Part shown: positions 1 through 39,447 of the stretch, in pieces
How the letters are laid out: the number at the start of each line of letters is the position of its first letter
How positions within the stretch are numbered: position 1 is the first letter of the stretch
Assembly (NCBI GenBank): GCA_963555705.1
Contig: OY743180.1
Location: 39,898,129 to 39,962,128, forward strand
Direction of reading: 5' to 3'
Length of the DNA: 64,000 bases
Source of the DNA: Ligustrum vulgare
Lineage: Eukaryota > Streptophyta > Magnoliopsida > Lamiales > Oleaceae
Translations under genes and position numbers: made by a program
Notes under the pieces: generated by a model
Database searches by the model: none
Told to the model about the DNA's origin: nothing
Seen by the model: the letters and a program-made list of their open reading frames with translations, nothing else

Positions 1-1551
1 CCTGAACTTTCAAAAGTATTCATTTTAATCCCTCAACTTTCAAAACATCAATTTTAGTCCTCAAATTATAATTTATCATTTTGAACTATATATTCGATAT
101 ACTAAAGTGACTTATTGGCTAAGACGAAGCGTACGGAGAATTTAAAGAAATTGAAGTCATTCCCGCTCAACTTTGCACTCGTCGGATTTGAGGTAGACTC
201 GCACTTATTAATTGATTTAAATTATGATTTCATATGAATGTCATGTGACTTGTGAAAGTCAATTTTTAAGAAAAACAAGTATGTTTTTATGAAAGGTAAA
301 TATACCTTATGTTGTTATGAAAAGTAAGTATGTTTTTATGAAAAGAAAATATACTTTATGTTTTTACGAAAAGTAAGTATACCCTATGCTTCACGAAAAT
401 GTTTTTTTTGGATCATTGCTATGAAATCAATCTACCAAGATTGTTTTGGGTCCCATATGATAAGTTATGATATGTTAAGGGGACCGGAGTTTTAGTAGCG
501 CTACACATAAGAATTCTTGCCACCTAAGTTCGGTAACATTCTTGTGTCTCCTATGTTTATGAGGATTTGCCACGAAGTTCGGTAAAATTCCTATCTTTCC
601 ATATGTTTATGAGGATTTACCACCTAAGTTCGGTAAAATTCCTGTCGCATATGTTTATGAGGATTTCGATCCTATCTTATGTTATGATGCAATTGATCCC
701 TATGAATTTCAGAAAATTATGCTTGGTATACTTACTACATAAGAATTGTTGCCACCTAAGTTCGGTAAAATTCTTATGTTTATGAGAATTTGGTTTTTAT
801 CCTATGTTATGATGAAAACTTACTGTTATTATGATTTTACTACATAAGAATTCTTACCACCTAAGTTCGGTAAAATTCTTATGTTTATGAGGATTTCAAT
901 CCTATCTTATGTTATGCTTTCAAAAGAAATTATGCTTGGCATAATTAAAATGTTTTATAAGTATATGGTTTTCAAAGAACTGTTTTCAAAGAGATGTTTT
1001 CAAAGAGCATATGATTTGCAAAATATGTCCCGTGCTGTAATGCACAATATGAGTTTTATCAAGAACAGTTTTATAAAGAAGCTCTATCAATGCCCGTTTT
1101 ATAAAGAGCCGGGATTTATGTGTTTAATCATCTTATAAATTAAATTAATTTGCGATGAGTCTACTGAGTATTTCCCCCATGAAATACTCACCCTACTTTT
1201 AACAGTTTTGCAGATTTCGGAGACGGTGGCGAGCGATGAATGATGGTGGCAATAATCGTTGAACGGTTGAAAGTTTGACGTTAATGATTTCCGTATTTTC
1301 CAAACAATCGAATAATTTAGAGAAGTTCATTTATTTGAGAAATTATGATATTGGCAATTTCTTTACAATATTAATGGTTCTATTTACTATTTCAAATGGT
1401 TTCATAAATGTTTTCAATTTTAGCGGCCATTACAGTTTATTTAATGTTGCCAAAAATGAATTTCAATTATTTCTTCCGCAAAAATATTATTCGAAAAATT
1501 TAGACAGAAAATGACGTAGTGAATCGGGTATACGGAACTCGGGGCGCTACA
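1..1551 (+). mobile_element. 5' LTR (3' portion) of a gypsy-type element carrying the LOG cassette
   Basis: This segment is repeated at 6719-8269 with a constant offset of 6718 bases. Reading the two copies side by side I found one substitution (near 748). It ends in CGCTACA and is followed at once by a primer-binding site. By comparison with the complete 3' LTR, about the first 1.88 kb of this LTR lie left of the window. The near-identity of the two LTRs implies very recent insertion. Short open frames inside it are duplicated in both LTRs and look non-coding. Confidence 0.93.
505..905 (+). repeat. Degenerate tandem repeat in the LTR (TAAGTTCGGTAAAATTC units)
   Basis: About six diverged units contain GTTCGGTAA (A/C)ATTC followed by TATGTTTATGAGGATTT, for example near 528, 573, 628, 758 and 863. 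The same array is in the 3' LTR at about 7223-7623. Repeats of this kind in LTR U3 regions can act as promoter or enhancer arrays; that role is inference here. Confidence 0.7.
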
Positions 1552-1570
1552 AGTTGGTATCAGAGATAGT
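1552..1570 (+). promoter_or_regulatory. Primer-binding site (initiator Met tRNA type)
   Basis: Directly after the LTR end (CTACA) comes AGTTGGTATCAGAGATAG. This carries the TGGTATCAGA core seen in plant LTR elements primed by initiator Met tRNA. It fixes the element orientation as plus. Confidence 0.85.
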
Positions 1571-2459
1571 CTGCGTTTCTGTAGACTGGAAAAATTTTCA
1601 AAAAAAAAGAATTTTCAAGAAACATTTTCCATTATAAAATTTTATTGATGAAGATTGCCACTGCCATCATTCGTTCCACCAACTCCGAGGTAAAGAAGTT
1701 TATGATGTTTAAAGTTAGTTCAGTATTTCGAATACTCATTTTATTGATTTATGAGAAAGAATGAAGAGTATTTCGGATACTTATGATTTATGAGAAATAA
1801 GAATGTATTTCTTCGAAAATAATGATGTTGTTATGCTTTGTCATAACTTATATGCTTTAATGTATGATTATGAGAAATTTTTAAAGAAAACGAGTGTTGA
1901 GCATAATGGGAATAATATGATTTTATTGAGAATTAAGTAATGGATATTATGTTGAGATAATTTATTATGCCTCTATGTTGAAGAGAAATTTATTATGAAG
2001 TTTGGCTTTGTGAATAAATTTTGGGAATATGATTTATGGCATATATTTATAAGTATGAGTAACTTTTGAGCCAATTAAGGTATGGAAGGAAGTAATATTG
2101 TGATATTGAAAAATATGATTTGAAATTTCTATGTTGAGGAATTATGAATTGAATTATGGGATATTTTGATGATATTGAAGTTTGGAATCGTTTTCAATAT
2201 TTTAGATCGTTGTGATCAAATGTGGAGTTATTTATTATTGTGAGTTATGAAGTATGTTTATGGTTTGGATAAGTCCAAATTACAAGGGAGACTCTATCCA
2301 GAATTTTATCATTTGGAATTAAGAGCATAATATGATAAGCATCCACTAAAGAAATTAAGGTTAGACATGCAAGATCATTTACATCACAAACGAGATTTAG
2401 TAGATGATAGCAGAAATTTTATTATTTTCTCATAAGGAGAACACACAAGAGTCACACTG
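1571..2459 (+). other. Noncoding interior of the gypsy-type element, no gag or pol recognised
   Basis: AT-rich sequence with many TTATGA and GAGAAAT repeats. The start (near 1648-1690) resembles the leader and gag-start region of Tekay/Del-type chromoviruses, but no gag frame survives. I recognise no protein here in any frame. Confidence 0.6.
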
Positions 2460-2523
2460 GAAAGGAAATACATGAAACACACAAAAGCATAAGAGAAAAA
2501 CATGGAAAGATCCTCAGAATGAG

Positions 2524-2746
2524 AGATGTGTTTCCGGAGTAGCCGTATCCTACCACCTCTGATCTTTTGAGGATATAAAGAGAAAACCTTCAAAGAGGTG
2601 TGTTTCGAGAGTAAGAATACTCCGTAATCTACCACCTGGAATCTTTGAAGTACACACAAGATTTAAACATTAAGGAAATCCTAGTAAATGGAGGGGTGTC
2701 TCGAGAGTGAGAATACTCCGTACTCTACCCCCACCTATTCTAAGAT
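2524..2746 (-). repeat. Three diverged tandem units just downstream of the LOG stop codon
   Basis: Three units of about 50-60 bp lie near 2525-2572, 2598-2650 and 2692-2750. Each contains, on the plus strand, GTGT(T/C)TC-GAGT, then CCGTA-TCTACC and an ACCT/CTTT segment. The same three-unit array follows the second LOG copy at about 27503-27712. Lying at the 3' side of the minus-strand LOG gene, it could form the 3' UTR or act in 3' end formation. That role is inference. Confidence 0.65.
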
Positions 2747-3400
2747 TCAAAGAGTTAAGTTTACATTAACCGGACTCCATTTTCGCTTGATTCCCCTTCC
2801 TTGCGACCAATCTATCTTAACTCCTGCTGGATCTTGTATTGAGATATATGACTGCAGCTTATCCAGTAGTTCATCAATAGTAGGAGCAGAAATAAGAAGC
2901 CTTCTGGAAAATGGAGAGATGAATCCCTGTTCCACAGCATAATCAAGAAAGGTTAACAAACCATCAAAGAAATTGTTAACATTCAGAAGCCCAATAGGCT
3001 TAGTATGGAGATCTAGTTGAGCCCACGAGGTAATGTTAAAGATTTCTTCTAAGGTACCAAAACCTCCGGGCAGGGCTATAAAGGCATCAGAACCATATAG
3101 CATACAAGTTATGCGTTCATGGATGGATAAGGTTTGAACTTCATGCCCTCGTGTTTTGCCTGCAACATCTACCAAAGGGACAGGTATGACACCGATTACT
3201 TTTGATTTCTCTGCAAGAGCAGATTGGGAAACACAACCCATTAGACCACTGCTACCACCCCCATATACAAGAGTGATACCTTTTTCCCCCAGTTTCTTTC
3301 CAAGATCTACAGCCGCTTCTAGATAACCGAAGCCTTTCCCTACTTTTGATCCACAAAATACACAAATAGTTTTGATCTGTCGAAGTTTTGGTGCTTCCAT
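2747..3400 (-). CDS. LOG: LOG-like cytokinin riboside 5'-monophosphate phosphoribohydrolase (antisense in retroelement)
   Basis: Intact 217-residue frame. LOG enzymes release free active cytokinin base from the nucleotide in one step, usually in the cytosol or nucleus. Seen here: ICVFCGS at 12-18, the glycine-rich GGGSSGLMG at 47-55, HERITCM at 94-100 retaining the conserved Arg (R96), and PGGFGTLEE at 111-119 retaining the conserved Glu (E119). The usual RK pair is RI here. Length fits the plant family (about 210-230 aa). Plant LOG genes normally have several introns; this frame has none, suggesting origin through an mRNA copy. The ATG at 3400 is preceded by an in-frame stop, and a TATA-like TTTAAATAG lies about 80 bp upstream. 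It is transcribed against its host element. Expression and activity are unknown. Confidence 0.9.
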   Translation of the reverse strand: MEAPKLRQIKTICVFCGSKVGKGFGYLEAAVDLGKKLGEKGITLVYGGGSSGLMGCVSQSALAEKSKVIGVIPVPLVDVAGKTRGHEVQTLSIHERITCMLYGSDAFIALPGGFGTLEEIFNITSWAQLDLHTKPIGLLNVNNFFDGLLTFLDYAVEQGFISPFSRRLLISAPTIDELLDKLQSYISIQDPAGVKIDWSQGRGIKRKWSPVNVNLTL

Positions 3401-3702
3401 CTTTGATAGTAAAGAAGGGAAAACTTACGAAGAAGATGTGATTTTGGGATGCCTGAACTATGAAATATGTTTGACTATTTAAAGCCGGAAAAATTTACTG
3501 TTTTTGATTGATTCTGAAAAAGTAAAGATTTACTTTTGACAAAATCAGCCCACTTTTGAATATTTTATCGTATCGAGGCTGTCATCTTTCGGCGATTAAA
3601 TATTTATTTCCAGCTTTATCAAACCTCGAGAAAGGAAAATATATTTTATTTCCAAAACGCGTGAAAGAAAGCAGCAAAATATTTTAAAAAAAAAGATTTA
3701 CC
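3401..3702 (-). promoter_or_regulatory. Spacer between the two antisense genes with TATA-like box
   Basis: On the minus strand CTTTAAATAG sits at 3484-3475, about 80 bp before the LOG start. Diverged homologous sequence lies at about 28370-28620 in the second cassette, where the box reads TTTAAAAAG. A promoter here would give LOG its own transcript; this is inference from position and motif. Confidence 0.45.
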
Positions 3703-4254
3703 TTATATCATTGCTGAACTGCCAGAAGCCTCATTTTGTAAAACAGACTGGCAAACAGGATCTTTCGATATTATATTTTGGAGACTATAACGATTTTTGT
3801 CCTCGTTAAACTGAGCGTATAAGGAGAGAAGTTCACGTTGTACATAACCACTTGGGTGCGTCTCAAGAGTCAGTCGAATATCATCCAAAGACTCTTTACT
3901 CAGTCCACCCTTTATGAATTCGATTTTATCATCCCGATTAGTAGAAGAATATCCTACTGATTTGCAACGTGTATTACAGTTCCAACGAGCACATTTGTAG
4001 CAACCACCCAGTCTTTTTGCTCTTCGTTTCTTTGCGAACGTGCTTTTGCCTAAACCAGGCATATGTTTTGGAAATGTTGATGGTAATTCACCAGATAGTC
4101 GAACCTTTGCTTCTATCAACCAGCGAACATCTTCTGGAATATCATGAGCCATTAGCAACCTCAATCTTTCGAGCCTTATTTTATAGATCTTTCTCAGATC
4201 ATTCATAGGAAGACTGGAATAATACTTGCGAATGTTAGAAGGAATGATATCCAT
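3703..4254 (-). CDS. Small basic Cys-rich protein resembling plant-virus nucleic-acid-binding proteins
   Basis: Intact frame of 183 residues from the ATG at 4254; a Met at 4269 would add five residues. I chose 4254 because the second copy starts there and lacks the upstream Met. Seen: a helical charged N-terminal half, then GKSTFAKKRRAKRLGG leading straight into four cysteines spaced C-x2-C-x4-C-x3-C, then an acidic/hydrophobic C-terminal half. A basic RRAK patch immediately before a Cys cluster is the hallmark of the small nucleic-acid-binding protein of carlavirus-like plant RNA viruses. The relation is suggested, not proven, since the Cys spacing is shorter. It lies upstream of LOG on the same strand, about 300 bp apart, with a TTTAAATAG box at 4296-4287. 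Function unknown. Confidence 0.7.
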   Translation of the reverse strand: MDIIPSNIRKYYSSLPMNDLRKIYKIRLERLRLLMAHDIPEDVRWLIEAKVRLSGELPSTFPKHMPGLGKSTFAKKRRAKRLGGCYKCARWNCNTRCKSVGYSSTNRDDKIEFIKGGLSKESLDDIRLTLETHPSGYVQRELLSLYAQFNEDKNRYSLQNIISKDPVCQSVLQNEASGSSAMI

Positions 4255-4286
4255 TGTTTGATGATTCAACCTCTTCTCAGCATGAA

Positions 4287-4298
4287 CTATTTAAAAGC
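4287..4298 (-). promoter_or_regulatory. TATA-like box upstream of the Cys-rich gene
   Basis: Minus strand GCTTTTAAATAG. The same CCTTTAAATAG lies at 29189-29179 before the second copy, about 35-40 bp from its ATG. Conservation across the two elements supports function, but the leader would be very short. Confidence 0.4.
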
Positions 4299-4838
4299 GT
4301 AAAGGATCTGAGTGAATCCGCGTGATGTTGTGACCAGCAAGAAAGCGCAGGATTATTTTAATGAAAAGAGGAGACAAGAAGTAATGCGCTGTTAAATTTT
4401 ATCGATAAAGGAGATTTGATTGGAGATTTGGAATATTTTCTTGGATTATGGGTACTGATATTTTGTTTTAATAATGATAATCTTGGTATAGTGTGATGAT
4501 ACGTGGAAAGTAAAATGAGTACCGTATTGAATCAGAATTCATACGTATATACAAGTGAAAGAAATACTTTGCAGGAAATGTGGTGACATTTAAGTATAGA
4601 ATCTTAGTTTTGGGAGATATTTGTTTACTGAATTTTGGGTTACAAATATTGGAAAGATAAGTTGATAATATTATGTTGATATGTTTGGGTATTTTACGTA
4701 GAGAAAATATTCAGGAATTGTTTTGATTATTTTGAGAATATTCGATGATAAGAAGAAGAGATTCTGATTAAGTATTCAGAAATTATAAGATTAAGTAAGT
4801 TTAATTTCGAGGACGAAATTATTTTAAGGAGGTAAGAT
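4299..4838 (+). other. 3' interior of the gypsy-type element with polypurine tract
   Basis: Homology to the second cassette continues to about 4580. The rest is noncoding. Near the end come TTCGAGGACGAAATT and the purine-rich TTTTAAGGAGGTAAGA, the standard 3' end of Tekay/Del-like Ty3/gypsy chromoviruses, directly before the 3' LTR. Confidence 0.75.
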
Positions 4839-7800
4839 TATAGCGATCCAGAATTTTTATACAATAAATAATTATTTTAATATTTAGAAAATTGTGTCGC
4901 TACTATTTCATTTATTATTTTGAAATTAATGCCGCGACGGATTCGTCTAGCCAAGTCAAGAAATATCGAATTTGTTCGATTTTAAATTAAAATCCGAATT
5001 TCTAAAATTATGTTATTTTAATTATTTATTCAAAGTATTATTTTCAAAATCATTTTTAATTCCAAATTTATTAAAATATCTCAATTTTCTTTATTCTCAA
5101 ATTATTTTCAGTCCAAAGTATATCTGTTTTAAACACATTTCTTAATCAAAATTAGTCTAATTTTCAATGGATTACTTCCCACTTTTTTTCATCTTTATTA
5201 CATTATTAAGCACCTACTCTACTCATATTCCCCATGTTCCCATTAATCATTTTATTTTCTTTTTTTTTTTCTTTCCTTTTGAGCACTTTCATCCTCAAGA
5301 CATCATCATCACCAAACCAACTAATTATTCCCCATGTCTCCCACTTTTCTCTCCAATAAATCACCATCACGACAATCACTATAATCATCATCAATCCACA
5401 AGCTTTGCCTCAACTCCAAAACCGGCCATTTCTATAAGCACCTATGCTGCAACCACCAATGCAGCCACCACAGATGTTGCCTTCCATCCTCACCACCCCA
5501 GTGCAGCTCAATCTGCAATCAGTCTCCAACCATCAACAAAAGGGTAATGTTAAACATCCAATTCACCAAAGCTGTTGATTCACCATCATTTTCAAATCAG
5601 CATCATCATCACCGGACACCACCAATTCACAGCAAATTCACTATCAATGCACTGCTCAATTCAAGAAATCATCTCCATGACTCCCAATCGAACAAACCAA
5701 ACACTGCCTCAACCAATTTTGATCAAGCAGACACCATCACTGCTGAATCACCCTCACCTCATTGCAATCAACCACAGTATTCATCATTTTATCATCGATC
5801 AAACCATCACCGGAAATTAACTCAACCACAGCCACCACCGTACCTAGCTACAATCATCAGACGACATCACCACCTCCGACCACCACTACTCAACTCTAAA
5901 TCACCAAATGAACACCAACCTTCAAGATCAAACATCCGTTCATCATCATCATCGCCAACAACCCAATCATCACAACCAATACATCAAAACCACCCTGCAA
6001 CCAGTTTTCGTTGCAGCTCCAAACCGCCACGCAACCAACTCAGCCCATCCAACTCACCATCTTCATCACCAACGTAATCACTGTAAAACCACCAAGTCAT
6101 CATCACCCAATCACCGAATCATCACCACCCAAAACCATCATCCTCAGTCACAAATCAAACCCAAAATCAAAACTGAAAACCCAGAATAAGTTATCCCAAA
6201 TACTTACCTACCTCGACCGCCGACTGTTTTGACCGGATTTACAACCGGAAATCGCTACCTTAAACCGCGACTTTGAGCCTCGATAAATCTCTGATTCAAA
6301 CCTATCTCGCATCAAAGCTTCCTCAAATCAGAACTCCCACACTTTACCGTCCTTCGCCTCACCTAGCGCCGGCGAATCACCGGCGGTATTACTCGATCGC
6401 CTCCTCCGCCTTTTTTGTTCTCTGAGAGTGAGAGAATGGTAGAGAGAGAGAGTGAAATCGATATGAATGAGAGAGAGAGTAAAAGATCTGAATGATATAT
6501 TTCCAGAATTTGCAAATCAGTCCCTGATGTTTTAAATTGTTTTAATTCAGTCCCTACTGTTTTAAACTCATCCATTTCAGCCTCAAAGCTTTAAAATGAT
6601 TTACTTCAGCCCTTTAACTTTAAACTCTTTTATTTCAGTACCTGCTGATTTACTTTTAAGCCCAAGTTTTAAAAGTATTCATTTTAGTCCCTTAACTTTC
6701 AAAATATCTATTTTAGTCCCTGAACTTTCAAAAGTATTCATTTTAATCCCTCAACTTTCAAAACATCAATTTTAGTCCTCAAATTATAATTTATCATTTT
6801 GAACTATATATTCGATATACTAAAGTGACTTATTGGCTAAGACGAAGCGTACGGAGAATTTAAAGAAATTGAAGTCATTCCCGCTCAACTTTGCACTCGT
6901 CGGATTTGAGGTAGACTCGCACTTATTAATTGATTTAAATTATGATTTCATATGAATGTCATGTGACTTGTGAAAGTCAATTTTTAAGAAAAACAAGTAT
7001 GTTTTTATGAAAGGTAAATATACCTTATGTTGTTATGAAAAGTAAGTATGTTTTTATGAAAAGAAAATATACTTTATGTTTTTACGAAAAGTAAGTATAC
7101 CCTATGCTTCACGAAAATGTTTTTTTTGGATCATTGCTATGAAATCAATCTACCAAGATTGTTTTGGGTCCCATATGATAAGTTATGATATGTTAAGGGG
7201 ACCGGAGTTTTAGTAGCGCTACACATAAGAATTCTTGCCACCTAAGTTCGGTAACATTCTTGTGTCTCCTATGTTTATGAGGATTTGCCACGAAGTTCGG
7301 TAAAATTCCTATCTTTCCATATGTTTATGAGGATTTACCACCTAAGTTCGGTAAAATTCCTGTCGCATATGTTTATGAGGATTTCGATCCTATCTTATGT
7401 TATGATGCAATTGATCCCTATGAATTTCAGAAAATTATGCTTGGTATACTTACTACATAAGAATTCTTGCCACCTAAGTTCGGTAAAATTCTTATGTTTA
7501 TGAGAATTTGGTTTTTATCCTATGTTATGATGAAAACTTACTGTTATTATGATTTTACTACATAAGAATTCTTACCACCTAAGTTCGGTAAAATTCTTAT
7601 GTTTATGAGGATTTCAATCCTATCTTATGTTATGCTTTCAAAAGAAATTATGCTTGGCATAATTAAAATGTTTTATAAGTATATGGTTTTCAAAGAACTG
7701 TTTTCAAAGAGATGTTTTCAAAGAGCATATGATTTGCAAAATATGTCCCGTGCTGTAATGCACAATATGAGTTTTATCAAGAACAGTTTTATAAAGAAGC

Positions 7801-8269
7801 TCTATCAATGCCCGTTTTATAAAGAGCCGGGATTTATGTGTTTAATCATCTTATAAATTAAATTAATTTGCGATGAGTCTACTGAGTATTTCCCCCATGA
7901 AATACTCACCCTACTTTTAACAGTTTTGCAGATTTCGGAGACGGTGGCGAGCGATGAATGATGGTGGCAATAATCGTTGAACGGTTGAAAGTTTGACGTT
8001 AATGATTTCCGTATTTTCCAAACAATCGAATAATTTAGAGAAGTTCATTTATTTGAGAAATTATGATATTGGCAATTTCTTTACAATATTAATGGTTCTA
8101 TTTACTATTTCAAATGGTTTCATAAATGTTTTCAATTTTAGCGGCCATTACAGTTTATTTAATGTTGCCAAAAATGAATTTCAATTATTTCTTCCGCAAA
8201 AATATTATTCGAAAAATTTAGACAGAAAATGACGTAGTGAATCGGGTATACGGAACTCGGGGCGCTACA
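4839..8269 (+). mobile_element. 3' LTR (3431 bp) of the gypsy-type element carrying the LOG cassette
   Basis: It begins TATAGCGATCC (expected TGTAGCGACC; the first G appears mutated to A) and ends GGCGCTACA. Its last 1551 bp match the partial 5' LTR almost perfectly. Inside are a C/A-rich, G-poor stretch (about 5160-6200) that yields overlapping His/Ser/Pro-rich frames, a GA-rich patch (6420-6480), a roughly 30-bp minisatellite (6500-6790) and the GTTCGG array. The frames at 5167-6232 look like low-complexity artefacts. Confidence 0.9.
6505..6795 (+). repeat. Roughly 30-bp minisatellite (TTCAGTCCCT-x-TTTTAAA type)
   Basis: About nine degenerate units of the pattern TT(C/A)AGTCCCT...CTTT(A/C)AAA. 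Part of it is also seen at 1-65 in the 5' LTR. Similar units occur in unrelated elements at 11246-11720 and about 44507-44660. Confidence 0.75.
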
Positions 8270-8386
8270 GACCATGTGCGAAAGGGTGAATGAGCCATGA
8301 GCTTAGTGGGATGAGTGTCAGATTGATGAGAGACTAGGAGAAGAGAAGCACTAAAGAAGAAGACTTAGAAGAGATGTGTGCCCGCC
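8270..8386. other. Flanking DNA between the gypsy-type LTR and the hAT element
   Basis: About 117 bp of unrecognised sequence. Its last eight bases, TGCCCGCC (8379-8386), are the left target duplication of the hAT element. Confidence 0.6.
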
Positions 8387-13190: not shown

Positions 13191-13375
13191 TTGAAGCAGG
13201 ACAGAACTGAAAGTTTTTTTACTTGGCAAACACCTCTAAAGATAAGGGCAAGAAAACAAATAAAGAAAATAAAGTCGTTTAAGGGGCTATAAATTTAATT
13301 ATCCCACACTTAAGTCAATTTTGAAACGGGAAATGCAACATTTTTTGAAGATGTTGAGTTTGGGGGGAGAAATAA

Positions 13376-14291
13376 GGTTAGAGATATTGTCTTTAAGGAA
13401 GAAGTTGAGGAAGGATCGGTTTTGATTCCTACTATTGCTTTTGATAATGTGCAAGTTTCTATACATGTCATTGATCAAGAAGCATATTCGGAACCTCAAT
13501 TAGACAATGTTGAAGAACCTCCCATCCAAAATAAGGTAAATTTCAGAAGTACAAACTCAACAACCTCAATAACTAAAGCCATTAAGGAAATCCACGAGAG
13601 AAAGGGAAAAAATGTTATTCCGGATAATTTAAATAGTATTTTTCCAAGAACATAAGAAAAATAATGGAATGGTGGAAGATGGTTAGAGATATTGTCTTTA
13701 AGGAAGAAGTTGAGTAAGGATCGATTTTGATTCCTACTATTGCTTTTGATAATGTGCAAGTTTCTATACATGTCATTGATCAAGAAGCATATTCGGAACC
13801 TCAATTAGACAATGTTGAAGAACCTCCCATCCAAAATAAGATAAATTTCAGAAGTACAAACTCAACAACCTCAATAACTAAAGTCATTAAGGAAATCCAC
13901 GAGAGAAAGGGAAAAAATGTTATTCCGGATAATTTAAATAGTATTTTTCCAAGAACATAAGGAAAATAATGGAATGGTGGAAGATGGTTAGAGATATTGT
14001 CTTTAAGGAAGAAGTTGAGGAATGATCGGTTTTGATTCCTACTATTTCTTTTGATAATGTGCAAGTTTATATACATGTCATTGATCAAGAAGCATATTCG
14101 GAACCTCAATTAGACAATGTTGAAGAACCTCCCATCCAAAATAAGGTAGATTTCAGAAGTACAAACTCAACAACCTCAATAACTAAAGTCATTAAGGAAA
14201 TCCACGAGAGAAAGGGAAAAAATGTTATTCCGGATAATTTAAATAGTATTTTTCCAAGAACATAAGGAAAATAATGGAATGGTGGAAGATG
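13376..14291 (+). repeat. 305-bp unit in three tandem copies, coding-derived
   Basis: Units start near 13376, 13681 and 13986 at GGTTAGAGATATTGTC. Each carries the same 77-residue frame (13422, 13727, 14032) beginning MIPTI(A/S)FDNVQV and ending NLNSIFPRT. The frame corresponds to the linker between integrase and reverse transcriptase in this copia family. Copies differ by a handful of substitutions, so the triplication is recent relative to the decay of the rest of the element. Confidence 0.88.
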
Positions 14292-20300: not shown

Positions 20301-21371
20301 ATGGCTAACCATAATCTTGAGGGGCATTCTACAAATCGTCCTCCTTTCTTTGATGGTACACATTATAACTATTGGAAGACTAGAATGATGATTTTTGTTC
20401 AATCAATAGATTATAATATTTGGGAAGTCATCGAAGAAGGTCCTCATAAGCTTACTAAAGTTATTAAGGTTGATGGAAAACCGGATCAAACTATTTCAAA
20501 ACCTAGAGAGCAATATAATGATAATGATAGGAGAGAATTGACCTTAAATGCTAGAGCCAAAAATATACTTTATTGTGCTTTGGATAAGAATGAATTTAAT
20601 CGTATTTGCACATGTGATTCCGCATTTGATATTTGGCATACATTAGAAATCACACACATGAGTACAAGCAAAGTGAAAGAAACTAAGACAAATCTTTTAT
20701 TTAAAGATTTTGAAAATTTCTTTATGAAGCAAGATGAGCCCATTACTTGCATGATTACTCGTTTTACCGATATTGTCAATGGTCTTAAAGGCTTTGATCA
20801 TAAATTTACTAACGGTGAACTTGTGAGTAAAATTCTTAGGTCTCTCTCCCAAGATTGGAATCCATTGAGGATGTTGATCGAAAACACAATTGACGTCAAC
20901 ACACATCCATTGGAAGAGCTTTATGGAACATTGATGACTTTTGAGCTCAACAATGTCGAAACAAAGGAGAGGACAAGAAAAGGAAAAGAAGAGGCCAATC
21001 GCGAAATTGCTCTTAAATCATCACATGGTAAATGCTCATCAAACTCAAACATAAGTGATGAGGAACTTGATGATCTTGCTATCCTTATCAAGAAGTGGAG
21101 AGGCGTACGCAACAATCATCGAATCCAAAAGAGAGACGAAAAAGATGAAAAGATTGTTTGCTATAATTGTGACAAACCCGGTCACAAAAGTACCGAGTGT
21201 CGAAGCAAGAAAATATTTTTCAAAAAGAAAGCTCTACAAGCCACTTGGGATGAAATTGATGATGAGCAAGATGAAGATGAGAGTCAAGATGAAGTGGCTA
21301 ACATGTGCTTCATAACTATTGAGGATGAGGTAAATTTCTTTGATACCTCTTGGACTTTGAATGATCAATGA
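20301..21371 (+). CDS. Gag polyprotein of a SIRE-like copia element
   Basis: Intact frame of about 356 residues from MANHNLEG; an upstream Met at 20265 is less likely because homologous gags begin near this Met. Seen: FDGTHYNYWKTRMMIFV near the N-terminus (the copia gag/DUF4219 start), a central UBN2-like helical segment with HMSTSKVKETKTNLL, a basic linker, a CCHC zinc knuckle CYNCDKPGHKSTEC, and an acidic tail (DEIDDEQDEDESQDE). Gag forms the virus-like particle and binds RNA. The frame stops shortly after the knuckle, and protease, integrase and RT do not follow, so the element is cut near 21350. Confidence 0.9.
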   Translation: MANHNLEGHSTNRPPFFDGTHYNYWKTRMMIFVQSIDYNIWEVIEEGPHKLTKVIKVDGKPDQTISKPREQYNDNDRRELTLNARAKNILYCALDKNEFNRICTCDSAFDIWHTLEITHMSTSKVKETKTNLLFKDFENFFMKQDEPITCMITRFTDIVNGLKGFDHKFTNGELVSKILRSLSQDWNPLRMLIENTIDVNTHPLEELYGTLMTFELNNVETKERTRKGKEEANREIALKSSHGKCSSNSNISDEELDDLAILIKKWRGVRNNHRIQKRDEKDEKIVCYNCDKPGHKSTECRSKKIFFKKKALQATWDEIDDEQDEDESQDEVANMCFITIEDEVNFFDTSWTLNDQ

Positions 21372-25231: not shown

Positions 25232-25707
25232 AGCAATTTAAAAGTACAATTTAGACCAATGGAGTTGAAACTATTCTTGAGAATATTGAATCATGATACT
25301 TCCAATATCAATGATATTCTGGTAAGATTTTTTTTATGGAAGTGGCAAAAAATTCTATATTCTTATCTATAACATACCATGCATGAGAAAACATCTGTAT
25401 AAGATAATGCCTGGTTAAACAATCATTTTGGGAACATAAACCTGCTTTTGTATTTAAGTAATGTGCATAATATGAGGAATTGTGTTTGTTGGCCATTAGT
25501 GGTGATTAAGTAAAATTATTTAATCTTCTATTGCATCTACTTTAATTTCAAAGGATGTGTCTATTCATGATTATTATGGCCGACAGTTTTCTGTGTCCAT
25601 TTCAATTTAAATTGACTCCAACCGTCAGTGGCCAATGTTTTTTGTCTTCAAGTCTAAGAAACTTGGAATACTGATGTTAAGTTAAAAACTATATAAGTCC
25701 ATCTTAT
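25232..25707. other. Unassigned AT-rich DNA
   Basis: No gene seen. It ends with CTTAT (25703-25707), the left target duplication of the following element. Confidence 0.5.
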
Positions 25708-25935
25708 TGTTATGAAATATGATGTAAGAAAATTAGGTATTTGAATGAATATTACCATTATGCCCCTGTAAAATTTACATATTACGATTGTGTCATTATT
25801 CGCTCCTATAAATAGGAGCCATTTTCATAAGAAATTTACACCTCTGGAAGAGAATTTCTCTCTACTCTCTCATTCTCTCCATCTAAGTTCTCTCTATCTA
25901 TTTCTTGTGTTTAGATTTTAGATAGTTTTACAACA
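25708..25935 (+). mobile_element. 5' LTR (228 bp) of the copia-type element carrying the second LOG cassette
   Basis: It begins TGTTATGAAATATGATG and ends TTTTACAACA. It matches 31830-32064 with about four substitutions and one 7-bp difference. The target duplication CTTAT is exact on both sides of the element (25703-25707 and 32065-32069). A TATA box (CTATAAATAG) lies inside the inverted repeat GCTCCTATAAATAGGAGC near 25802. Confidence 0.95.
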
Positions 25936-25950: not shown

Positions 25951-27489
25951 TCTCTAGTCTATTGAGTAATATGACGGGAGTATGCTCTACAGTTGCATCT
26001 AAATGATGAACCTCTGTATCAGAAACCAGATTATTATTAATCATCATTTATACTTCATAGATTAGAAAATCAATTCCAAGTATATAGAAAAATTGGAGAA
26101 ATTGTGTAATCCGAAACTTTCAAAGCAAATTCACGCCAAACCGTATATCCAAACGATGATCGGAGACCATATCCATGACGACGGAGACGGGACGATCCTC
26201 CGGCATCGGCGCGTGTTGACGGCAGAGTCACCGGCGCGTCGGCGCGTGAATCTCACGCGTAGACGTCAACTAGGCGCGTGAGGGCGCGTGGATCATTTTT
26301 CGGCGATGACGTCAACATGCAGTTTGTTCATATCGACGTTCTTGATTTTTCTATGATCTTACTTTTTTGTTTTGTGTAGTTTTAAAATTTTCCGGCGGTC
26401 GAACGTGGCGGTTTTCTTAAAAACCGTTTTTGGAGAACTTCCGACGAAATTTTGAACTTCGGACCAAAAGTAAGTTTGTTCTAAATTAAATTTCAAACCT
26501 ATTGACGGTTTCGATTTATCCATATGAGCAATATATTAAAATATGGACCATTTTGCCCTTGGTAATACATAAAAGTATATTAATCGTAAATTAACGATTA
26601 ATATGAGATCAACAAAATAAATTAAATTTTCAACAAGGTATAAGTAATATAATCATTGTCATACCGTGATGGATTGAGTTATTATGGATTGGATTTATAC
26701 CTTAACTGGACACGACTCATTATCGTAACGGATTGGACTATTATGAATACCTTGACTGGATTTGAAGATATGACTCACTCACTATTATGAATACCTTGAC
26801 TGGATTTGAAGATATGACTCGCTCACTCATGAAAGGTAATTATTTCATTATGTTGACACTGCCTATATGGCCGGTTTATCAATTGAATATATGGAATACT
26901 TTATATATATTCATATTTCAGAAACACCTCAGTTGTTGGTTAATTCTAACATATTAGAGGTTGTTGTCAACATATATACGTGGTGGTATAACCCCAGTAT
27001 TATTATTGTTAATATATATACAATATTGTTATTTAATACTTCATTAAATGATACCAGAAGTTATCACTACTAAAGATAGATAATATTTCATCAAATGATA
27101 CCAGAAGTTATCATTACCAAAAAGTTGGTAAATGTTGATAAAAATATTTTATCCAATAGTACCAGAAGTTACCAATATCTGAATTTGAATGGGTGGATGA
27201 AAATTATTCAACAAGAGAATATTGATGTATGATAAGATAATATCACATGATAGCACATATATAGCTAATGTGAAAATAATCTCATCAGTATTATGAGATG
27301 AATATTAGATGATAAGTGTCTGGAAAAGTTTTTGCACGAGCACTTATGTATTCCAGAAGAAGTACATATTTACTCCAGAAGAAGTAAAAAATTATCATCT
27401 AAACATACTGAAATGATATTATTATTATTGCTCCTGAAGAAGCATAAATGAGTCATACATGCAAAATACAAAAGGGGAAAACATTTATG
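25951..27489 (+). other. 5' interior of the copia-type element, noncoding
   Basis: No gag frame is left. A GC-rich patch with repeated GGCGCGTG lies at 26160-26295. Tandem pieces are present: a CCTTGACTGGATTTGAAG unit near 26749 and 26791, and units with ATACCAGAAGTTA(T/C)CA near 27051, 27109 and 27160. Confidence 0.55.
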
Positions 27490-27712
27490 ATTCTCAAAAT
27501 TAGAGATGTGTTTCGGGAGTAGCCGTATCCTACCACCTCTGGTCTTTTGAGGAAATAAAGAAAAAGGTGTGTTTCAATAGTAATAATACTCCGTACTCTA
27601 CCACCTTAAATCTTTGAGGTACACAAGATTAAACATTGATAAAATCCTAGAAATTTATGGTGTGTCTCAAGAGTGAGAATACTCCGTACTCTACCACCAC
27701 CTATTTTAGGGT

Positions 27713-28366
27713 TCACAAAGATAAGTTTACATTAACCGAACTCCATTTTCGTTTGATTCCCCTTCCTTGCGACCAATCTATCTTAACTCCTGCTGGATCT
27801 TGTATTGGAATATATGATCGCAACTTATCCTGCAGTTCCTCGATAGTAGGAGCAGAAATAAGGATTCTCCTAGAAAATGGAGAGATGAATCCCTGTTCCA
27901 CAGCATAATCAATAAATGCTAACAAACCATCAAAGAAATTGTTAATATTTAAAAGCCCAATAGACTTAGTATGGAGATCTAGTTGAGCCCATGAGGTAAT
28001 ATTAAAGATTTCTTCTAAAGTACCAAAACCTCCGGGCAGGGCTATAAAGGCATCAGAACCATATAACATGCAAGTTATGCGTTTATGGATAGATAAGGTT
28101 TGTACTTCATGCCCTCGTGTTTTTCCTGCGATATCAGCTAAAGGAGTAGGTATAACACCTATCACTCTTGCTTTCTCTACTAGAGCGGATTGTGAAACAC
28201 AACCCATCAATCCACTGCTACCTCCTCCATACACGAGAGTGATACCTTTCTCTCCCAACTTCTTTCCTAAATCCACGGCTGCTTCTAGATATCCAAAACC
28301 CTTTCCTACTTTTGATCCACAAAATACACAGATAGTTTTGATCTGTCGAAGTTTTGGTCCTTCCAC
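27713..28366 (-). CDS. LOG: LOG-like cytokinin riboside 5'-monophosphate phosphoribohydrolase, copy 2
   Basis: Open frame colinear with the first LOG copy over 217 codons, about 90% identical in protein. GGGSSGLMG, HKRITCM (conserved Arg kept) and PGGFGTLEE are all present. The codon matching the copy 1 start is GTG, so the ATG is lost here. The frame stays open upstream to a Met at 28465, which would add 33 hydrophobic residues, but that extension matches noncoding DNA in copy 1 and is probably not original. The protein may be made from the upstream Met, or not at all. It ends NVNLSL as copy 1 ends NVNLTL. Confidence 0.8.
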   Translation of the reverse strand: MEGPKLRQIKTICVFCGSKVGKGFGYLEAAVDLGKKLGEKGITLVYGGGSSGLMGCVSQSALVEKARVIGVIPTPLADIAGKTRGHEVQTLSIHKRITCMLYGSDAFIALPGGFGTLEEIFNITSWAQLDLHTKSIGLLNINNFFDGLLAFIDYAVEQGFISPFSRRILISAPTIEELQDKLRSYIPIQDPAGVKIDWSQGRGIKRKWSSVNVNLSL

Positions 28367-28621
28367 CTTTGAGAGAATAAGGAAGGAAAAACTTATGAGA
28401 AAATGATATTTTGGGATATATGAAACTGTGAAAATCATTGGCTTTTTAAACTTGAAAAACTTCACTATTTACTGCTCGAAAAAGTGAAGATTACTTTTGA
28501 AAAAATCACCACCTATCGGTGATTTAATATTTTTAACCAGCCTTTATCAAAACTCGTGAAAGGAAACAGAAAAATATTTTATATGTGCATATATATCAAA
28601 TGATTTACCTTGTATTAATGC

Positions 28622-29144
28622 TGCATAGCTAAAAAATCATTGTTTATAACAGCCTGGAAAACAGGATCTTTTGCTACTATATTTTTGAGACTATAACGAT
28701 TTTTATCCTTGTTAAATTGAGCATATAAGGAAAGGAGTTCACGTTGCACATACCCACTTGGGTGCGTCTCAAGAGTCAATCGGATATCATCCAATGACTC
28801 CTTACTCAGTCCACCCTTAATGAAATCGATTTTATCATCCCGATTTCTAGAAGAATATCCTACTGATTTGCAACGAGTATTACATGTCCAACGAGCACAA
28901 GCCTTTTTGCTCTTCGTTTCTTTGCAAAAGTACTTTTTCCTAAACCAGGCATGTGTTTAGGAAATGTCAATGGCAATTCACCAGCTAATCGAACTTTTGA
29001 TTCGATCAACCAGTGAACATCTTCTGGGATGCCACGATCCATCAGCAACCTCAATCTTTCAAGCCTAATTCGATAAATTTTTTTCAAATCATTTACCGGA
29101 AGATTGGAATAATATTTGCGAATATTTAAAAGTATGATATCCAT
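28622..29144 (-). pseudogene. Small basic Cys-rich protein, copy 2, disrupted
   Basis: From the ATG at 29144 the first 83 or so residues match copy 1 closely, including GKSTFAKKRRAKRL. Directly after this a net 16-bp deletion (near 28898-28902) removes the first two cysteines of the cluster and shifts the frame, giving a stop after 94 codons. Beyond the break the old frame continues without stops to about 28622, so the damage is recent. The matching part of copy 1 is intact. TATA-like CCTTTAAATAG lies at 29189-29179. Confidence 0.8.
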
Positions 29145-29475
29145 TTTTTATGGATATAACCTTCTTCCCAAAAAAGATCTATTTAAAGGCATAAAGGAGT
29201 TGAGTGGATTCACGTGATATTGATTCCAGCAAGAAAGCATGGAATAGAATAATGAAAAATGGGAACAAGAGTTAATGCGCCGTTAACTTTCTCGAAAGGA
29301 AGATTTGATGATAAGATTGAGATCATGAGATATTTCCTTGGATATTGTACCTGATTTTCCGGTATACTAAAAGTAATAAAGGTATACTGATTTGAAATAT
29401 ACAGAAATACGTACTGATGAAATGAATACTGTATTGAACCAGAAGTTCATACATATGTACAAGTGAAATATCTTG

Positions 29476-31065
29476 CTGAACCTAAAGTTCTATAATGATT
29501 GGTTAGATTTCAATTCAATAATGAGATTTATTAAGAATGCAAAATAGCATTAATTAAAGAACCAGAAGATTGTTTAGGTTAACAAGTTATCATTGCTGCT
29601 TGTTCTCAAAAGCAAATTAATTATCTCACTAAGAAAATGAATGACTGATTATTTGCTCAAGTAATGATATTACGAGCAAAGTGATAAATGCTAGCATGAA
29701 TATATCTTAAAGTCATTAATGATTTTACGAATTAGTTGAGATAATAGAATATTATATTGCTAATGGTTTAGCAAATTAAAAGCCTCAAGTTATTTTCTAC
29801 GAGAACAATTTGAATATAAATATTTCTCATGCAGCAATATTTTACGTACAAACATGTCGATACTATGAAATAAAGATTTGCTTTTGAAGCTTTATGATTT
29901 GTAAAAGTGCGATATGTATTTAATCCACCAAAAGCGCACTTAGATATATGATTGAGATTATATCCCTAAAAGGATGACATGTTGTTATGGAATTTTAGCC
30001 GATTGATAATATTTGAGAACATTATGGGGAAAACATGCCTGAAGCGTAATTATGCCTGAATCATAATGACTATCGATTCCAAAAAATAAATATCTCTTGA
30101 ATGATTGAAATAATCCCTTTGAGGCTAAATACTCATAGTGAGTAAAAGGGACATAGTTAAATGATGAGATATTCAGGTACCTGATGATAGAACATATAAA
30201 GAGATCTCTCTATGTTATATTGAGACGGAATCGATAAATAAGCCGACTGCATACATAAACAACCCTCTTATGAAAATGAGGTTCATGAAATTATAATACT
30301 TTGGCCAAGTATAAAACCCCAATGTAGGGATTATTATTCAAGGACCTGAAGTCCAAATCCTTAAATGTGTAAAGCCAGTAATTATATGTACAAATGAAAA
30401 ATATTACACAGTCGTAAAAGACGACTCGTTGCGCGCAAAATTTTTCATAGAACTGGCATGACATATGGCGGATAGACTATAATCTAAATCACTAGCTTGA
30501 GCTCTTTGATATACCAATGAGTGAGATCAAAATGTATGACTCTCATCTCGGTACTTTGAGAGTATTCTTTGATGTACCAGTTGATCGCGGTACGTTGGGA
30601 TTTCAAGTAAAATGATTGTAGATTATATGTCGAAATTGATATCTATTTCAATGATTGATTATGCTCCTGCAAATTAGAAATTGCAGTTTATAAAGTGCAA
30701 GAACATACATGTATAATCAATGAAAGATTCAATATACCCAAATTAGTATCATTATAGAATGATACAAATGACTCCATGATATAATATGTTGAAAGTGAAA
30801 TTGGAATGTACTATTTATGACATCTGGGAAATTGATTATTCACTAGAAGTGAATATGAAAATGAATATATTTAATTATTCACCAGAAGTGAATTCTAAAT
30901 TTGATTATTCACCAGAAGTGAAAGATGCAATCGATAAATTAGTACAACATTGCTTAATATAGCATGTTATGACATCATGAGCTACGAACAATTTATATAA
31001 AGCTCATCATAAATTATATGATTGCACCAATATACTTGTGATATTCCATGAAAGGAATAAATACG
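29476..31065 (+). other. 3' interior of the copia-type element, noncoding
   Basis: AT-rich sequence with scattered short repeats such as ATTCACCAGAAGTGAA (30838-30925). I could not read any protease, integrase or reverse transcriptase frame, so this element, like the gypsy-type carrier, lacks pol. Confidence 0.55.
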
Positions 31066-31069
31066 CGTT

Positions 31070-31800
31070 GCACTCTTTTTCCCTTAGCTAAGGTTTTGTC
31101 CCACAGGGTTTTCCTAGCAAGGTTTTTAATGAGGCAATAGTTGAGGCGTATTGATGAAAATTAATGAGAATAATGTACTCTTTTTCCCTTCGCTGAGGTT
31201 TTGTCCCACAGGGTTTTCCTAGCAAGGTTTTTGAGGCATCATCATAGCTATCAACAAGCTATAATTCAGCAACACATTGTTATACTGGAATGATATCAAC
31301 AAATGAAGAAAATCATACACATCTTGTGAAGAATGTTATGATATCGGCTACACACAAGAAGATTTTCATATATACATATTCTAGACGAAAGATGATATCA
31401 TTATTCAAAAGGTTCATGAATACTTGATTGCACACTTCAGGGGGAGAATCATGCTGTACTCTTTTTCCTTCGTCCAGGTTTTGTCCTACTAGGTTTTCCC
31501 GACAAGGTTTTAATGAGGCAGCGGCTGTACTCTTTTTCCTTCGTTCAGGTTTTGTCCCATTGGGTTTTACTAACAAGGTTTTAACGAGGCAACACTAAAG
31601 TACTGAAGCACTGAAGCACTTCAGAAATTCAAATTTCAGTACATGATTTGCACTACTTATCATTGATGTCATTTTGGATATTAGACTCAATGATTAATGA
31701 TGGCCAACATCAGGGGGAGCAGCTGTACTATTTTTCCTTCGCTCAAGTTTTATCCCACTAGGTTTTCTTAGCAAGGTTTTAACGAGGCAGACAATTGAGC
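31070..31800 (+). repeat. Five units of a copia 3'-region repeat
   Basis: Units start TGTACTCTTTTTCC or close variants near 31073, 31172, 31457, 31525 and 31724. Each continues with GGTTTTGTCCCA(C/T), GGGTTTTCCTAGCAAGG and TTAA(T/C)GAGGCA. This block is characteristic of several plant copia elements just before the 3' LTR. Frames across it are accidental. Confidence 0.85.
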
Positions 31801-31820: not shown

Positions 31821-32064
31821 AAGGGGGAGTGTTATGAAATATGATGGAAGAAAATTAGGTATTAGGTATTTGAATGAATATTACCATTATGCCCCTGTAA
31901 AATTTACATATTACGATTGTGCCATTATTCGCTCCTATAAATAGGAGCCATTTTCATAAGAAATTTACACCTCTTGAAGAGAATTTCTCTCTACTCTCTC
32001 ATTCTCTCCATCTAAGTTCTCTCTATCTATTTCTTGTGTTTAGATTTTAGATAGTTTTACAACA
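31821..32064 (+). mobile_element. Polypurine tract and 3' LTR of the copia-type element
   Basis: AAGGGGGAG (31821-31829) is followed by the LTR (31830-32064, 235 bp), then the CTTAT target duplication at 32065-32069. Confidence 0.95.
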
Positions 32065-32069
32065 CTTAT

Positions 32070-37699: not shown

Positions 37700-38528
37700 A
37701 ATCAACCACGTTAAAATCTCGAAAGCTTTCTCAAAGTAAGGAAGCGATAAAATCAGTGCCTTACAAAACAAATCTTTAATAGTATTGAATGCATGTTCTT
37801 GTTCAATGCCCCCACTTTCCTACACTTTTCTTGACAACTTTTGTGAGTGGTGTGGCAATTGTACTAAAGTTTTTAACAAAGTTCCTTTTAACTTGTCAAC
37901 CATGGAAGCTCCTAAACTCAGTTACGCTTTTAGGTGTAGGCCATTCTTTAATAGCCTTGATTTTCTCCTCATCTAATTTCATACCCTTTGCAATAACCAC
38001 ATACCCGAGAAAGAAAACATTTTCCATGTTAAATGTACACTTTAAAATTGGCATAAAAGTTGTTCTTGTCTTAAAATACATGCACACATCTTACATGCTT
38101 TATATGTTCATCTAAGTCCTTACTATAAATCAATATGTCATTGAATTAAACTACTATGAATTTACATATGAATGCATGCAAAACATGATTCACCAATCAC
38201 ATAAATGTGCTAGGTGCATTAGTAAGTCAAAATGGCATGACTAACAATTCATACAATCCATATTTAGTTTTAAAAGCAGTTTTCCTTTCATCTTCTTTTC
38301 CATTCTAATTGATGATAATCACTTTTAAGGTCAATTTTACTAAATATGCACAATCCATGTAATTTATCCAACATATCATCTAACATAGGAATAAGATGAA
38401 GATTCTTTGTCGTTATGTTGTTAATGGCCCTTCAATCCACACAGATTCTTCAGGTTCAATCTTTTCTTGACACAAGTAACATTGTCACGACACATGAATT
38501 CATACTCTCCCTTACATAGAGGCTCATC
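37700..38528 (-). pseudogene. Ty3/gypsy reverse transcriptase (relic, 3' portion)
   Basis: On the minus strand the clearest frame (37896-38087) reads FLGYVVIAKGMKLDEEKIKA and IKEWPTPKSVTEFRSFHG, continuing in another frame to FYRRFV-like sequence. Toward 38400 come pieces for [10 protein letters not shown] and the palm region. Frameshifts and stops are numerous. It is interrupted at 38533 by the tRNA-like block and resumes at 39448. Confidence 0.85.
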
Positions 38529-38533
38529 AATTC

Positions 38534-39442: not shown

Positions 39443-39447
39443 AATTC

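What the first reader, a model, noticed from the sequence alone, without database searches (positions are those of the whole stretch)
2500..4580. The same antisense two-gene cassette (LOG-like enzyme plus Cys-rich basic protein) sits inside two unrelated LTR retrotransposons
Seen: 2500-4580, inside a gypsy-type element with 3.4-kb LTRs, and 27490-29475, inside a copia-type element with 0.23-kb LTRs, share order, strand, coding sequence, spacer and flanking repeat. Neither element has gag or pol; the cassette is all they encode. LOG makes active cytokinin, and small Cys-rich nucleic-acid-binding proteins of plant viruses are known to affect silencing or cell growth. Inference: a mobile or repeatedly captured module that may alter host cell proliferation or defence, spread by retroelements mobilised in trans. 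I know of no described system of this kind but cannot search.
Basis: partly seen in the sequence, partly recalled or inferred. Interest (0 to 1): 0.9.

Follow-up and report, generated by a model that had tools for sequence, protein, structure and literature searches.

The report
Virus-like gene pair inside two retrotransposons
Two unrelated plant jumping-gene families that carry no recognisable copying machinery of their own both hold the same backward-facing pair of genes, one related to a plant-virus nucleic-acid-binding protein and one to an enzyme that activates a growth hormone; selection has kept the pair's proteins, which likely act on the host cell to help the element spread.

Summary
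A 2.1-kb minus-strand cassette (CRP gene, then LOG gene) lies in two complete LTR elements: A (3431-bp LTRs, 1 mismatch, TSD GACCA) and B (228/235-bp LTRs, 95.4% identical, TSD CTTAT). Outside the cassette they share no detectable sequence. It is neither a single-copy locus nor one duplication: the 40 scored matches to cassette A are 95-100% identical; 14 of 14 fetched with flanks sit in family A; 22 of 23 scored places for element B span the whole cassette plus B sequence. The CRP reaches Pfam's cut-off for Viral_NABP and Carla_C4. LOG is under strong purifying selection (A/B dN/dS 0.105). New here: 92 of the 120 best LOG hits end in LxLxL, an EAR-like tail, against 0 of 120 canonical LOGs; the window's copies have a weaker VNVNLTL/VNVNLSL. 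Best explanation: accessory genes of gag/pol-less retrotransposons, likely nuclear, predicted to blunt silencing and shift cytokinin or TOPLESS signalling. A LOG-like extra ORF in gypsy elements is in print; my ten searches listed no report of the CRP, the pair, or its sharing between two LTR families. Function is untested.

The parts
1..1551 (+). Element A 5' LTR (3' part of 3431 bp; it starts 1,879 bp before the window)
   Evidence: 3431 bp, 1 mismatch to the 3' LTR; 5-bp TSD GACCA
1552..1575 (+). Element A primer-binding site region (TTGGTATCAGAG..., recalled as initiator-Met-tRNA type)
   Evidence: sequence; tRNA assignment recalled
2518..2735 (-). Three repeated stem-loop-like motifs (2518-2562, 2595-2640, 2694-2735) 3' of LOG, also present in copy B
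   Evidence: conserved core; folding only weakly better than shuffles
2747..3400 (-). LOG-like gene of copy A, 217 aa, basic stretch + VNVNLTL tail
   Evidence: PF03641 1.3e-33; PDB relative At2g37210 and others; dN/dS 0.105 vs copy B
3475..3483 (-). TATA-like TTTAAATAG 75 nt before the LOG start (TTTAAAAAG in copy B)
   Evidence: consensus only
3703..4254 (-). Cys-rich basic protein (CRP) gene of copy A, 183 aa, KKRRAKR + CX2CX4CX3C
   Evidence: PF05515 3e-7, PF01623 5.3e-6, both above the gathering score; 352 homologues at E<=0.001
4287..4295 (-). TATA-like TTTAAATAG 33 nt before the CRP start (same in copy B); would leave almost no leader
   Evidence: consensus only
4826..4838 (+). Element A polypurine tract (AAGGAGGTAAGAT)
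4839..8269 (+). Element A 3' LTR
   Evidence: TSD GACCA at 8270-8274
25708..25935 (+). Element B 5' LTR
   Evidence: TSD CTTAT at 25703-25707
27462..29468 (-). Cassette core of element B
27713..28366 (-). LOG-like gene of copy B (no stop inside; the codon aligned with copy A's ATG is GTG, and an ATG-started frame begins at 28438), tail VNVNLSL
28615..29144 (-). CRP gene of copy B, broken by a frameshift (two pieces read apart)
31821..31829 (+). Element B polypurine tract (AAGGGGGAG)
31830..32064 (+). Element B 3' LTR
   Evidence: TSD CTTAT at 32065-32069

Best explanation
Two LTR-retrotransposon families without recognisable gag or pol share an antisense pair of genes, a viral-type zinc-finger nucleic-acid-binding protein and a LOG-type enzyme, whose proteins purifying selection has kept and which likely serve as nuclear accessory proteins that make the host cell more permissive for the element. 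Shown: the pair, its antisense place in two multicopy families, homology to Viral_NABP/Carla_C4 and to LOG, intact frames in many copies, purifying selection. Inferred: minus-strand transcription from promoters inside the element; the CRP enters the nucleus by its basic stretch, binds RNA or DNA and blunts RNA silencing or alters transcription, as carlavirus CRPs do; LOG makes active cytokinin and, through its LxLxL-like tail, would bind TOPLESS-type corepressors; together they would favour dividing, weakly silencing cells in which helper gag/pol from autonomous relatives copies the element.
For: Two complete elements with own TSDs and no shared sequence outside the cassette. Family A: 40 of 40 scored matches (of 2352 first-look candidates) at 95-100%; 14 of 14 fetched loci LTR-internal-LTR; LTR pairs found in 13 of 14, 99.06-100% identical. 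Family B: 22 of 23 scored places span the whole cassette with B sequence. Frames without a stop: LOG 149 of 150 scored, CRP 144 of 150 scored (best-scoring ones, so biased to intact). Selection: LOG A/B 53 synonymous vs 23 nonsynonymous, p 4e-17; 29 copies 11 vs 3, p 3e-5; CRP pieces A/B p 2e-8 and 0.002. PGGxGTxE in 107 and the Arg motif in 99 of the 120 best LOG hits. LxLxL end: 92 of these 120 (88 with a basic stretch before it) vs 0 of 120 canonical; shuffled tails 0.7%. These LOGs separate from canonical ones on one 100/100 branch (48 rows). Viral CRPs as silencing suppressors and, for chrysanthemum virus B, a transcription factor causing hyperplasia: passages of PMC12172455.
Against: No expression, localisation, binding or enzyme data. 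The window's own LOG tails are VNVNLTL/VNVNLSL, not strict LxLxL, and 28 of the 120 best hits lack the strict tail; most of these 120 are called cassette-type by similarity only, their CRP neighbour unseen, and the 120 canonical controls are close relatives of one LOG3 query. CRP polymorphism among 30 close copies is not significantly constrained (9 nonsynonymous, 6 synonymous, p 0.09). The finger spacing differs from a carlavirus one (CX2CX12CX4C in chrysanthemum virus R, PMC8742542). The CRP's TATA-like box lies only 33 nt before its ATG, which speaks against it as the promoter. Both family B copies read at letter level have a broken CRP, and L046 a broken LOG too. No helper element was identified.
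Confidence: 0.5

Rival explanations
1. Passenger: the cassette was captured long ago and merely hitchhikes in non-autonomous elements; frames look intact because the copies are young.
For: Family A is very young (LTR pairs 99-100% in 13 of 14), and best-hit searches favour intact copies.
Against: Nonsynonymous changes are strongly depleted in LOG between A and B (dS 0.456, dN 0.048) and among diverged A subfamilies (0-1 nonsynonymous against 0-6 synonymous per locus, 14 loci); length and motifs are kept in relatives from several plant genera.
Confidence: 0.12
2. Host-useful genes: LOG and CRP are plant genes that benefit the host and that retroelements copied repeatedly; selection acts through the host.
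For: The LOG fold is of plant LOG type; cytokinin enzymes have host value.
Against: Scored copies are dispersed over many contigs, and those read with flanks have LTR-element flanks; cassette-type LOGs form their own branch apart from canonical LOG1/LOG3-type genes. No single-copy host locus was seen, but weaker matches were not scored, so one may exist.
Confidence: 0.08
3. RNA rather than protein: antisense transcription across the internal region regulates the element through dsRNA, the reading frames being secondary.
For: Antisense orientation, conserved 3' stem-loop-like motifs, and such roles discussed in PMC7264820 (parts 1-2 of 3 read).
Against: Protein-level selection on LOG and CRP.
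Confidence: 0.1
4. Scaffold, not hormone: the LOG fold is used mainly as an oligomeric, nuclear carrier of a corepressor-binding tail, and catalysis is dispensable.
For: The strict tail is in 92 of the 120 best hits and in 0 of 120 canonical LOGs; the catalytic Arg motif is absent from 21 of 120 (1 of 120 in canonical).
Against: PGGxGTxE remains in 107 of 120, about as in canonical LOGs (108 of 120); copy A keeps both motifs.
Confidence: 0.2

Closest known systems
LOG/YgdH-like extra ORF in plant Ty3/gypsy elements (PMC9289625 section 12: YgdH in Citrus and Populus consensuses, in line with Steinbauerova 2011; the LOGL4/Athila detail is recalled)
   Same: LOG-type domain inside LTR retrotransposons of eudicots
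   Different: There in gypsy-type consensuses found by their reverse transcriptase, no viral-type partner or tail mentioned in the section read; here paired with a CRP, in two LTR families, without gag/pol
Antisense accessory ORFs of Retand, Grande, RIRE2, PvRetro13 (PMC7264820 parts 1-2; PMC11963269 passages)
   Same: Antisense protein genes in LTR retrotransposons, often with suspected nuclear roles; Grande's has its own promoter (as told in PMC7264820)
   Different: [quoted passage not shown] the review states no clear similarity to other proteins, nor to viruses; here no pol, and CRP/LOG homology
Carlavirus/allexivirus/mandarivirus cysteine-rich NABP (Viral_NABP PF05515, Carla_C4 PF01623)
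   Same: Basic NLS-like stretch next to a Cys finger; Pfam cut-offs reached
   Different: Finger spacing; encoded by retrotransposons and not by an RNA virus
Orchid Ty3/gypsy AlkB-type m6A demethylase (PMC9289625, abstract passage and section 12)
   Same: Extra domain in plant LTR elements, proposed to act on RNA
   Different: Large 25-kb gypsy-type element with pol, different domain
Non-autonomous LTR elements (LARD/TR-GAG type; recalled)
   Same: LTRs, PBS, PPT, TSD without pol; need a helper
   Different: Those are typically non-coding or gag-only (recalled); here two conserved non-structural genes

Membership tests
LTR retrotransposon (non-autonomous) | Paired LTRs and 5-bp target duplication | tested here: met
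   (A: GACCA; B: CTTAT)
LTR retrotransposon (autonomous) | gag and pol coding regions | tested here: not met
   (40 of 40 non-cassette frames of 50 codons or more, no retrotransposon domain)
Ty3/gypsy (A) and Ty1/copia (B) | Order or phylogeny of pol domains | not testable with these tools
   no pol in either; labels rest on recalled PBS/PPT/LTR features
LOG cytokinin phosphoribohydrolase | Lysine_decarbox/LOG fold | tested here: met
   PF03641 1.3e-33; PDB LOG relatives; model pLDDT 83
LOG cytokinin phosphoribohydrolase | PGGxGTxxE and catalytic Arg (motifs recalled) | tested here: met
   present in copies A and B; 107 and 99 of 120 best hits
LOG cytokinin phosphoribohydrolase | Enzyme activity | not testable with these tools
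   -
Viral NABP / carlavirus CRP | Pfam profile above gathering score | tested here: met
   31.1 vs 23 and 26.8 vs 20.9 bits; 31 and 27 of 34 members at E<=0.001
Viral NABP / carlavirus CRP | Finger CX2CX12CX4C beside a basic NLS | tested here: not met
   Basic stretch present, but finger is CX2CX4CX3C (105 of 120 best hits); viral spacing from chrysanthemum virus R in PMC8742542
Viral NABP / carlavirus CRP | Silencing suppression, nuclear transcription activity | not testable with these tools
   -
Antisense aORF of Retand type | TRP28 domain, position between pol and 3' LTR | tested here: not met
   No PF04195 hit; no pol
EAR-motif repressor tail (consensus recalled) | LxLxL | tested here: inconclusive
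   Window copies VNVNLTL/VNVNLSL; 92 of 120 best hits strict, 0 of 120 canonical
Self-mobile DNA element | Terminal inverted repeats or duplication around the cassette | tested here: not met
   no 7-mer TIR; short shared words around copy A only (such as GAAATA, GGAAAT), none around B

The most novel reading that the evidence does not exclude
A plant retrotransposon 'satellite' system: a host-manipulation gene pair, made of a plant-virus-type silencing suppressor/transcription factor and a cytokinin-activating enzyme re-tooled with a nuclear TOPLESS-recruiting tail, has replaced gag and pol, jumped between unrelated LTR-retrotransposon families, and reprograms host cells so that helper machinery copies its carrier; RNA viruses and retrotransposons would share the same CRP toolkit.
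Probability: 0.25. Interest if true: 0.95.

Novelty: new variant of a known kind. Interest (0 to 1): 0.82.

Why it matters
Antisense accessory genes of plant LTR retrotransposons have had, by a 2020 review, no clear relatives and no known function (PMC7264820). Here one belongs to a studied family of viral pathogenicity proteins and its partner to a hormone enzyme, so silencing suppression, cytokinin activation and corepressor binding can each be tested directly. It would show gag/pol-less elements evolving host-directed genes under selection, and a gene family shared by RNA viruses and retrotransposons whose direction of transfer is open. It also warns annotators: some genes named LOGL10 or LOG3-like (Diospyros, Populus, Primulina) are nearest to this transposon-borne type.

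Tried and rejected
Rejected: single-copy host locus and one segmental duplication. Rejected as unsupported: cassette as a self-mobile DNA element. IMG/VR viral contigs: two scans, with the CRP and with alignment A1, found no relative. Rfam on 1500-4900: only a chance-level hit, E 3.2 and below its gathering score. CRP structure model is poor (pLDDT 62), so no fold search was made. Hairpins: single motifs reach z -0.5 to -2.0 and the 261-nt region -0.7, and in the six-row alignment 3 of 13 pairs have a change on both sides: suggestive only. In one search the CRP N-piece was read in a wrong frame; corrected. CRP-LOG linkage in other plants: only indirect (3 Orobanche gene models of the 120 listed carry both kinds of domain; 4 shared contig lengths besides one whole chromosome, from 52 and 32 typed rows of 120 and 120). 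A third CRP lineage (11 of 150 scored places) could not be placed in an element. Literature: the ten searches were made; no listed title or abstract start joins a viral NABP, LOG and LTR elements, but several lists were capped (for example 12 of 253 shown), and only PMC papers under open licences are held. PMC3136472 (passages) reports a betaflexivirus replicase-like sequence in cucumber; no CRP in the passages shown. Steinbauerova 2011 and Lukhovitskaya 2013 were not held, nor was the SPCFV NaBp paper; known to me through citing papers and recall. On re-checking I added (the remaining 30 frames, exact box and tract positions, tail counts).
Full report
What is there. The window is a 64-kb stretch (C13:39898129-39962128) of an unnamed 1.38-Gb genome, a plant by its content and relatives. 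Element A is a complete LTR element: LTRs of 3431 bp with one mismatch, the 5' one starting 1,879 bp before the window, internal region 1552-4838, perfect 5-bp target duplication GACCA. Element B is a second complete element: LTRs 25708-25935 and 31830-32064, 95.4% identical, duplication CTTAT. A BLAST of element A (its part in the window) against the rest of the window finds only the cassette: 2482-4560 against 27462-29468, 85% over LOG and its 3' region, 81% over the CRP region. The ORF lists of both internal regions hold 45 frames of 50 codons or more; the 40 that are not cassette frames gave no retrotransposon domain in Pfam.

The genes. Reading the minus strand, CRP comes first (4254-3703, 183 aa), then LOG (3400-2747, 217 aa). 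The CRP reaches Pfam's gathering score for Viral_NABP (31.1 vs 23 bits) and Carla_C4 (26.8 vs 20.9); 31 and 27 of 34 aligned relatives match these families. It has a basic stretch KKRRAKR followed by CX2CX4CX3C; each feature is present in 105 of the 120 listed relatives, and basic-then-finger in 96. LOG matches PF03641 at 1.3e-33 and solved Arabidopsis LOG-type structures; its model has mean pLDDT 83 with a low-confidence tail. Copy B keeps LOG without a stop, but its CRP is frameshifted. TATA-like boxes (TTTAAATAG; TTTAAAAAG for LOG of copy B) precede each gene, 75 nt before LOG and only 33 nt before CRP in copy A; the latter would leave almost no leader, so separate promoters are a guess. 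Three repeats of a stem-loop-like motif follow LOG in both copies.

How common. Cassette A as query gave 2352 first-look candidates, of which 40 were scored: all are near full length at 95-100%. All 30 loci cut out have both frames at full length (these are the best matches, hence biased). I fetched 14 of the 40 with wider flanks, among them the most diverged: 14 of 14 are LTR-internal-LTR of family A, LOG is 217 aa in 14 and CRP 183 aa in 13, 181 aa in one, and in 13 an LTR pair was found, 99.06-100% identical over the stretches held; so several diverged subfamilies moved recently. Cassette B gave 5974 candidates, 40 scored, of which 37 (itself included) are full length or nearly so at 88-100%. 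The whole of element B gave 11364 candidates, 23 scored (itself included); 22 of 23 contain the whole cassette together with B sequence outside it, one of them in two pieces. L046 is collinear with B over most of 5 kb, with a broken cassette. With relatives' proteins as queries, 149 of 150 scored LOG places and 144 of 150 scored CRP places have no internal stop (9031 and 8565 candidates); the LOG open-frame classes (225 aa as in A, 251 as in B, also 230, 236, 238, 243, 248) hint at further carrier types. Eleven of the 150 CRP places are a third lineage closer to other plants' form; their context is unknown.

Selection. Between LOG A and B: 53 synonymous and 23 nonsynonymous changes, dS 0.456, dN 0.048, ratio 0.105, p 4e-17 against neutral expectation. 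Among 29 of 30 close copies (one was not recovered by the script): 11 synonymous, 3 nonsynonymous (p 3e-5). Across 14 wider loci LOG has 0-1 nonsynonymous against 0-6 synonymous changes to copy A. CRP: N-piece A/B ratio 0.111, C-piece 0.32, p 2e-8 and 0.002; polymorphism among 30 close copies 9 against 6, not significant (p 0.09). The neutral expectation ignores transition bias. At a recalled rate of 6.5e-9 per site per year, dS 0.456 is about 35 million years, so the two cassettes are not a recent duplicate.

A tail on the enzyme. Of the 120 best of 7230 LOG hits, 92 end exactly in LxLxL, 88 of these with a basic stretch before it (for example KRK-LDLTLRL); none of 120 canonical LOGs, the best hits of one Arabidopsis LOG3-type query, does; shuffled tails do in 0.7%. 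LxLxL is the recalled consensus of the EAR repression motif that binds TOPLESS corepressors. Against this: 28 of 120 lack the strict motif, both window copies have valines (VNVNLTL, VNVNLSL), and the CRP neighbour of most of the 120 was not seen. In a tree of 48 LOGs the 35 cassette-type rows and 13 canonical ones are divided by one branch with support 100/100; of the three rows nearest the canonical side two (P0237, P0239) lack the tail and may be host genes, one (P0161) has it.

Other plants. CRP relatives are named from Orobanche, Populus, Xanthoceras and Acer, LOG relatives from Reevesia (many), Diplodiscus, Populus, Xanthoceras, Parasponia, Primulina and Diospyros. Three Orobanche gene models carry CRP and LOG domains in one protein, and four contigs appear by source and length in both lists: indirect evidence that the pair is linked elsewhere. 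Over the five linked pairs CRP and LOG identities correlate (r 0.79, 10 comparisons that are not independent).

How it most likely works. Two selected, non-structural genes in elements without gag/pol are best explained as accessory proteins acting on the host while helper proteins copy the element. CRPs of the viral family are silencing suppressors and pathogenicity factors, and that of chrysanthemum virus B is described as a transcription factor causing hyperplasia (PMC12172455, passages). LOG-type enzymes release active cytokinin (established). The pair would therefore weaken silencing and push cells towards division, with the LOG tail adding corepressor contact. Every functional step is inferred.

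What is known. LOG-like YgdH domains in gypsy elements of Citrus and Populus are in print (PMC9289625, section 12), with Steinbauerova 2011 cited there (not held). Antisense extra ORFs are a recognised class (PMC7264820, parts 1-2 of 3 read; PMC11963269, passages), stated to have no clear relatives. Ten searches of the library (listed in Tried and rejected; lists partly capped) showed no paper on the CRP in retrotransposons, the CRP-LOG pair, its sharing between two LTR families, or the tail. I therefore rate it a new variant of a known kind, with a bolder reading left open.

Noticed in passing
window 2518-2735 and 27497-27705, minus strand: Three repeats of a conserved GGTAGRNTACGG motif with hairpin potential follow LOG in both elements; the 3' region is about as conserved as the coding sequence (85%), function unknown.
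   Followed up: partly
G000 C8:18779476 and 18783994, C1:46299476, C10:54776568, C16:40940299 and six more: A third CRP lineage, 65-69% identical to a metagenome relative and matching its C-terminus; two copies lie 4.5 kb apart in inverted orientation on C8. Carrier unknown.
   Followed up: no
G000 C5:20669024-20684862, C10:10351129-10366784: Family A occurs as evenly spaced arrays (about 6.8-6.9 kb), as expected for LTR-internal-LTR-internal-LTR tandems.
   Followed up: no
P0017, P0018, P0022: Orobanche gene models join CRP and LOG in one protein; perhaps prediction artefacts across two neighbouring genes, but they suggest adjacency.
   Followed up: no
window 31061-31789: Five copies (61-85% identical to the reference copy) of a 75-nt motif (ACTCTTTTTCC...AAGGTTTT) just before element B's polypurine tract.
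   Followed up: no
window 43182-56160: Repeats at about 43.2-45.0, 45.3-47.2 and 54.3-56.2 kb flank a gypsy-type gag-pol remnant on the minus strand (48843-54181; Retrotrans_gag, RVT_1, RNase H, integrase zinc domain).
   Followed up: partly
window 13366-14275: Three tandem repeat units at 305-bp spacing, 97% identical.
   Followed up: no
window 38512-39444: Nested inverted and direct repeats of 65-213 bp, arms 82-98% complementary.
   Followed up: no
window 20301-21371 and 62402-62929: Copia-type gag ORF with zinc knuckle (plus strand) and a copia-type reverse transcriptase fragment (minus strand) from other elements.
   Followed up: no
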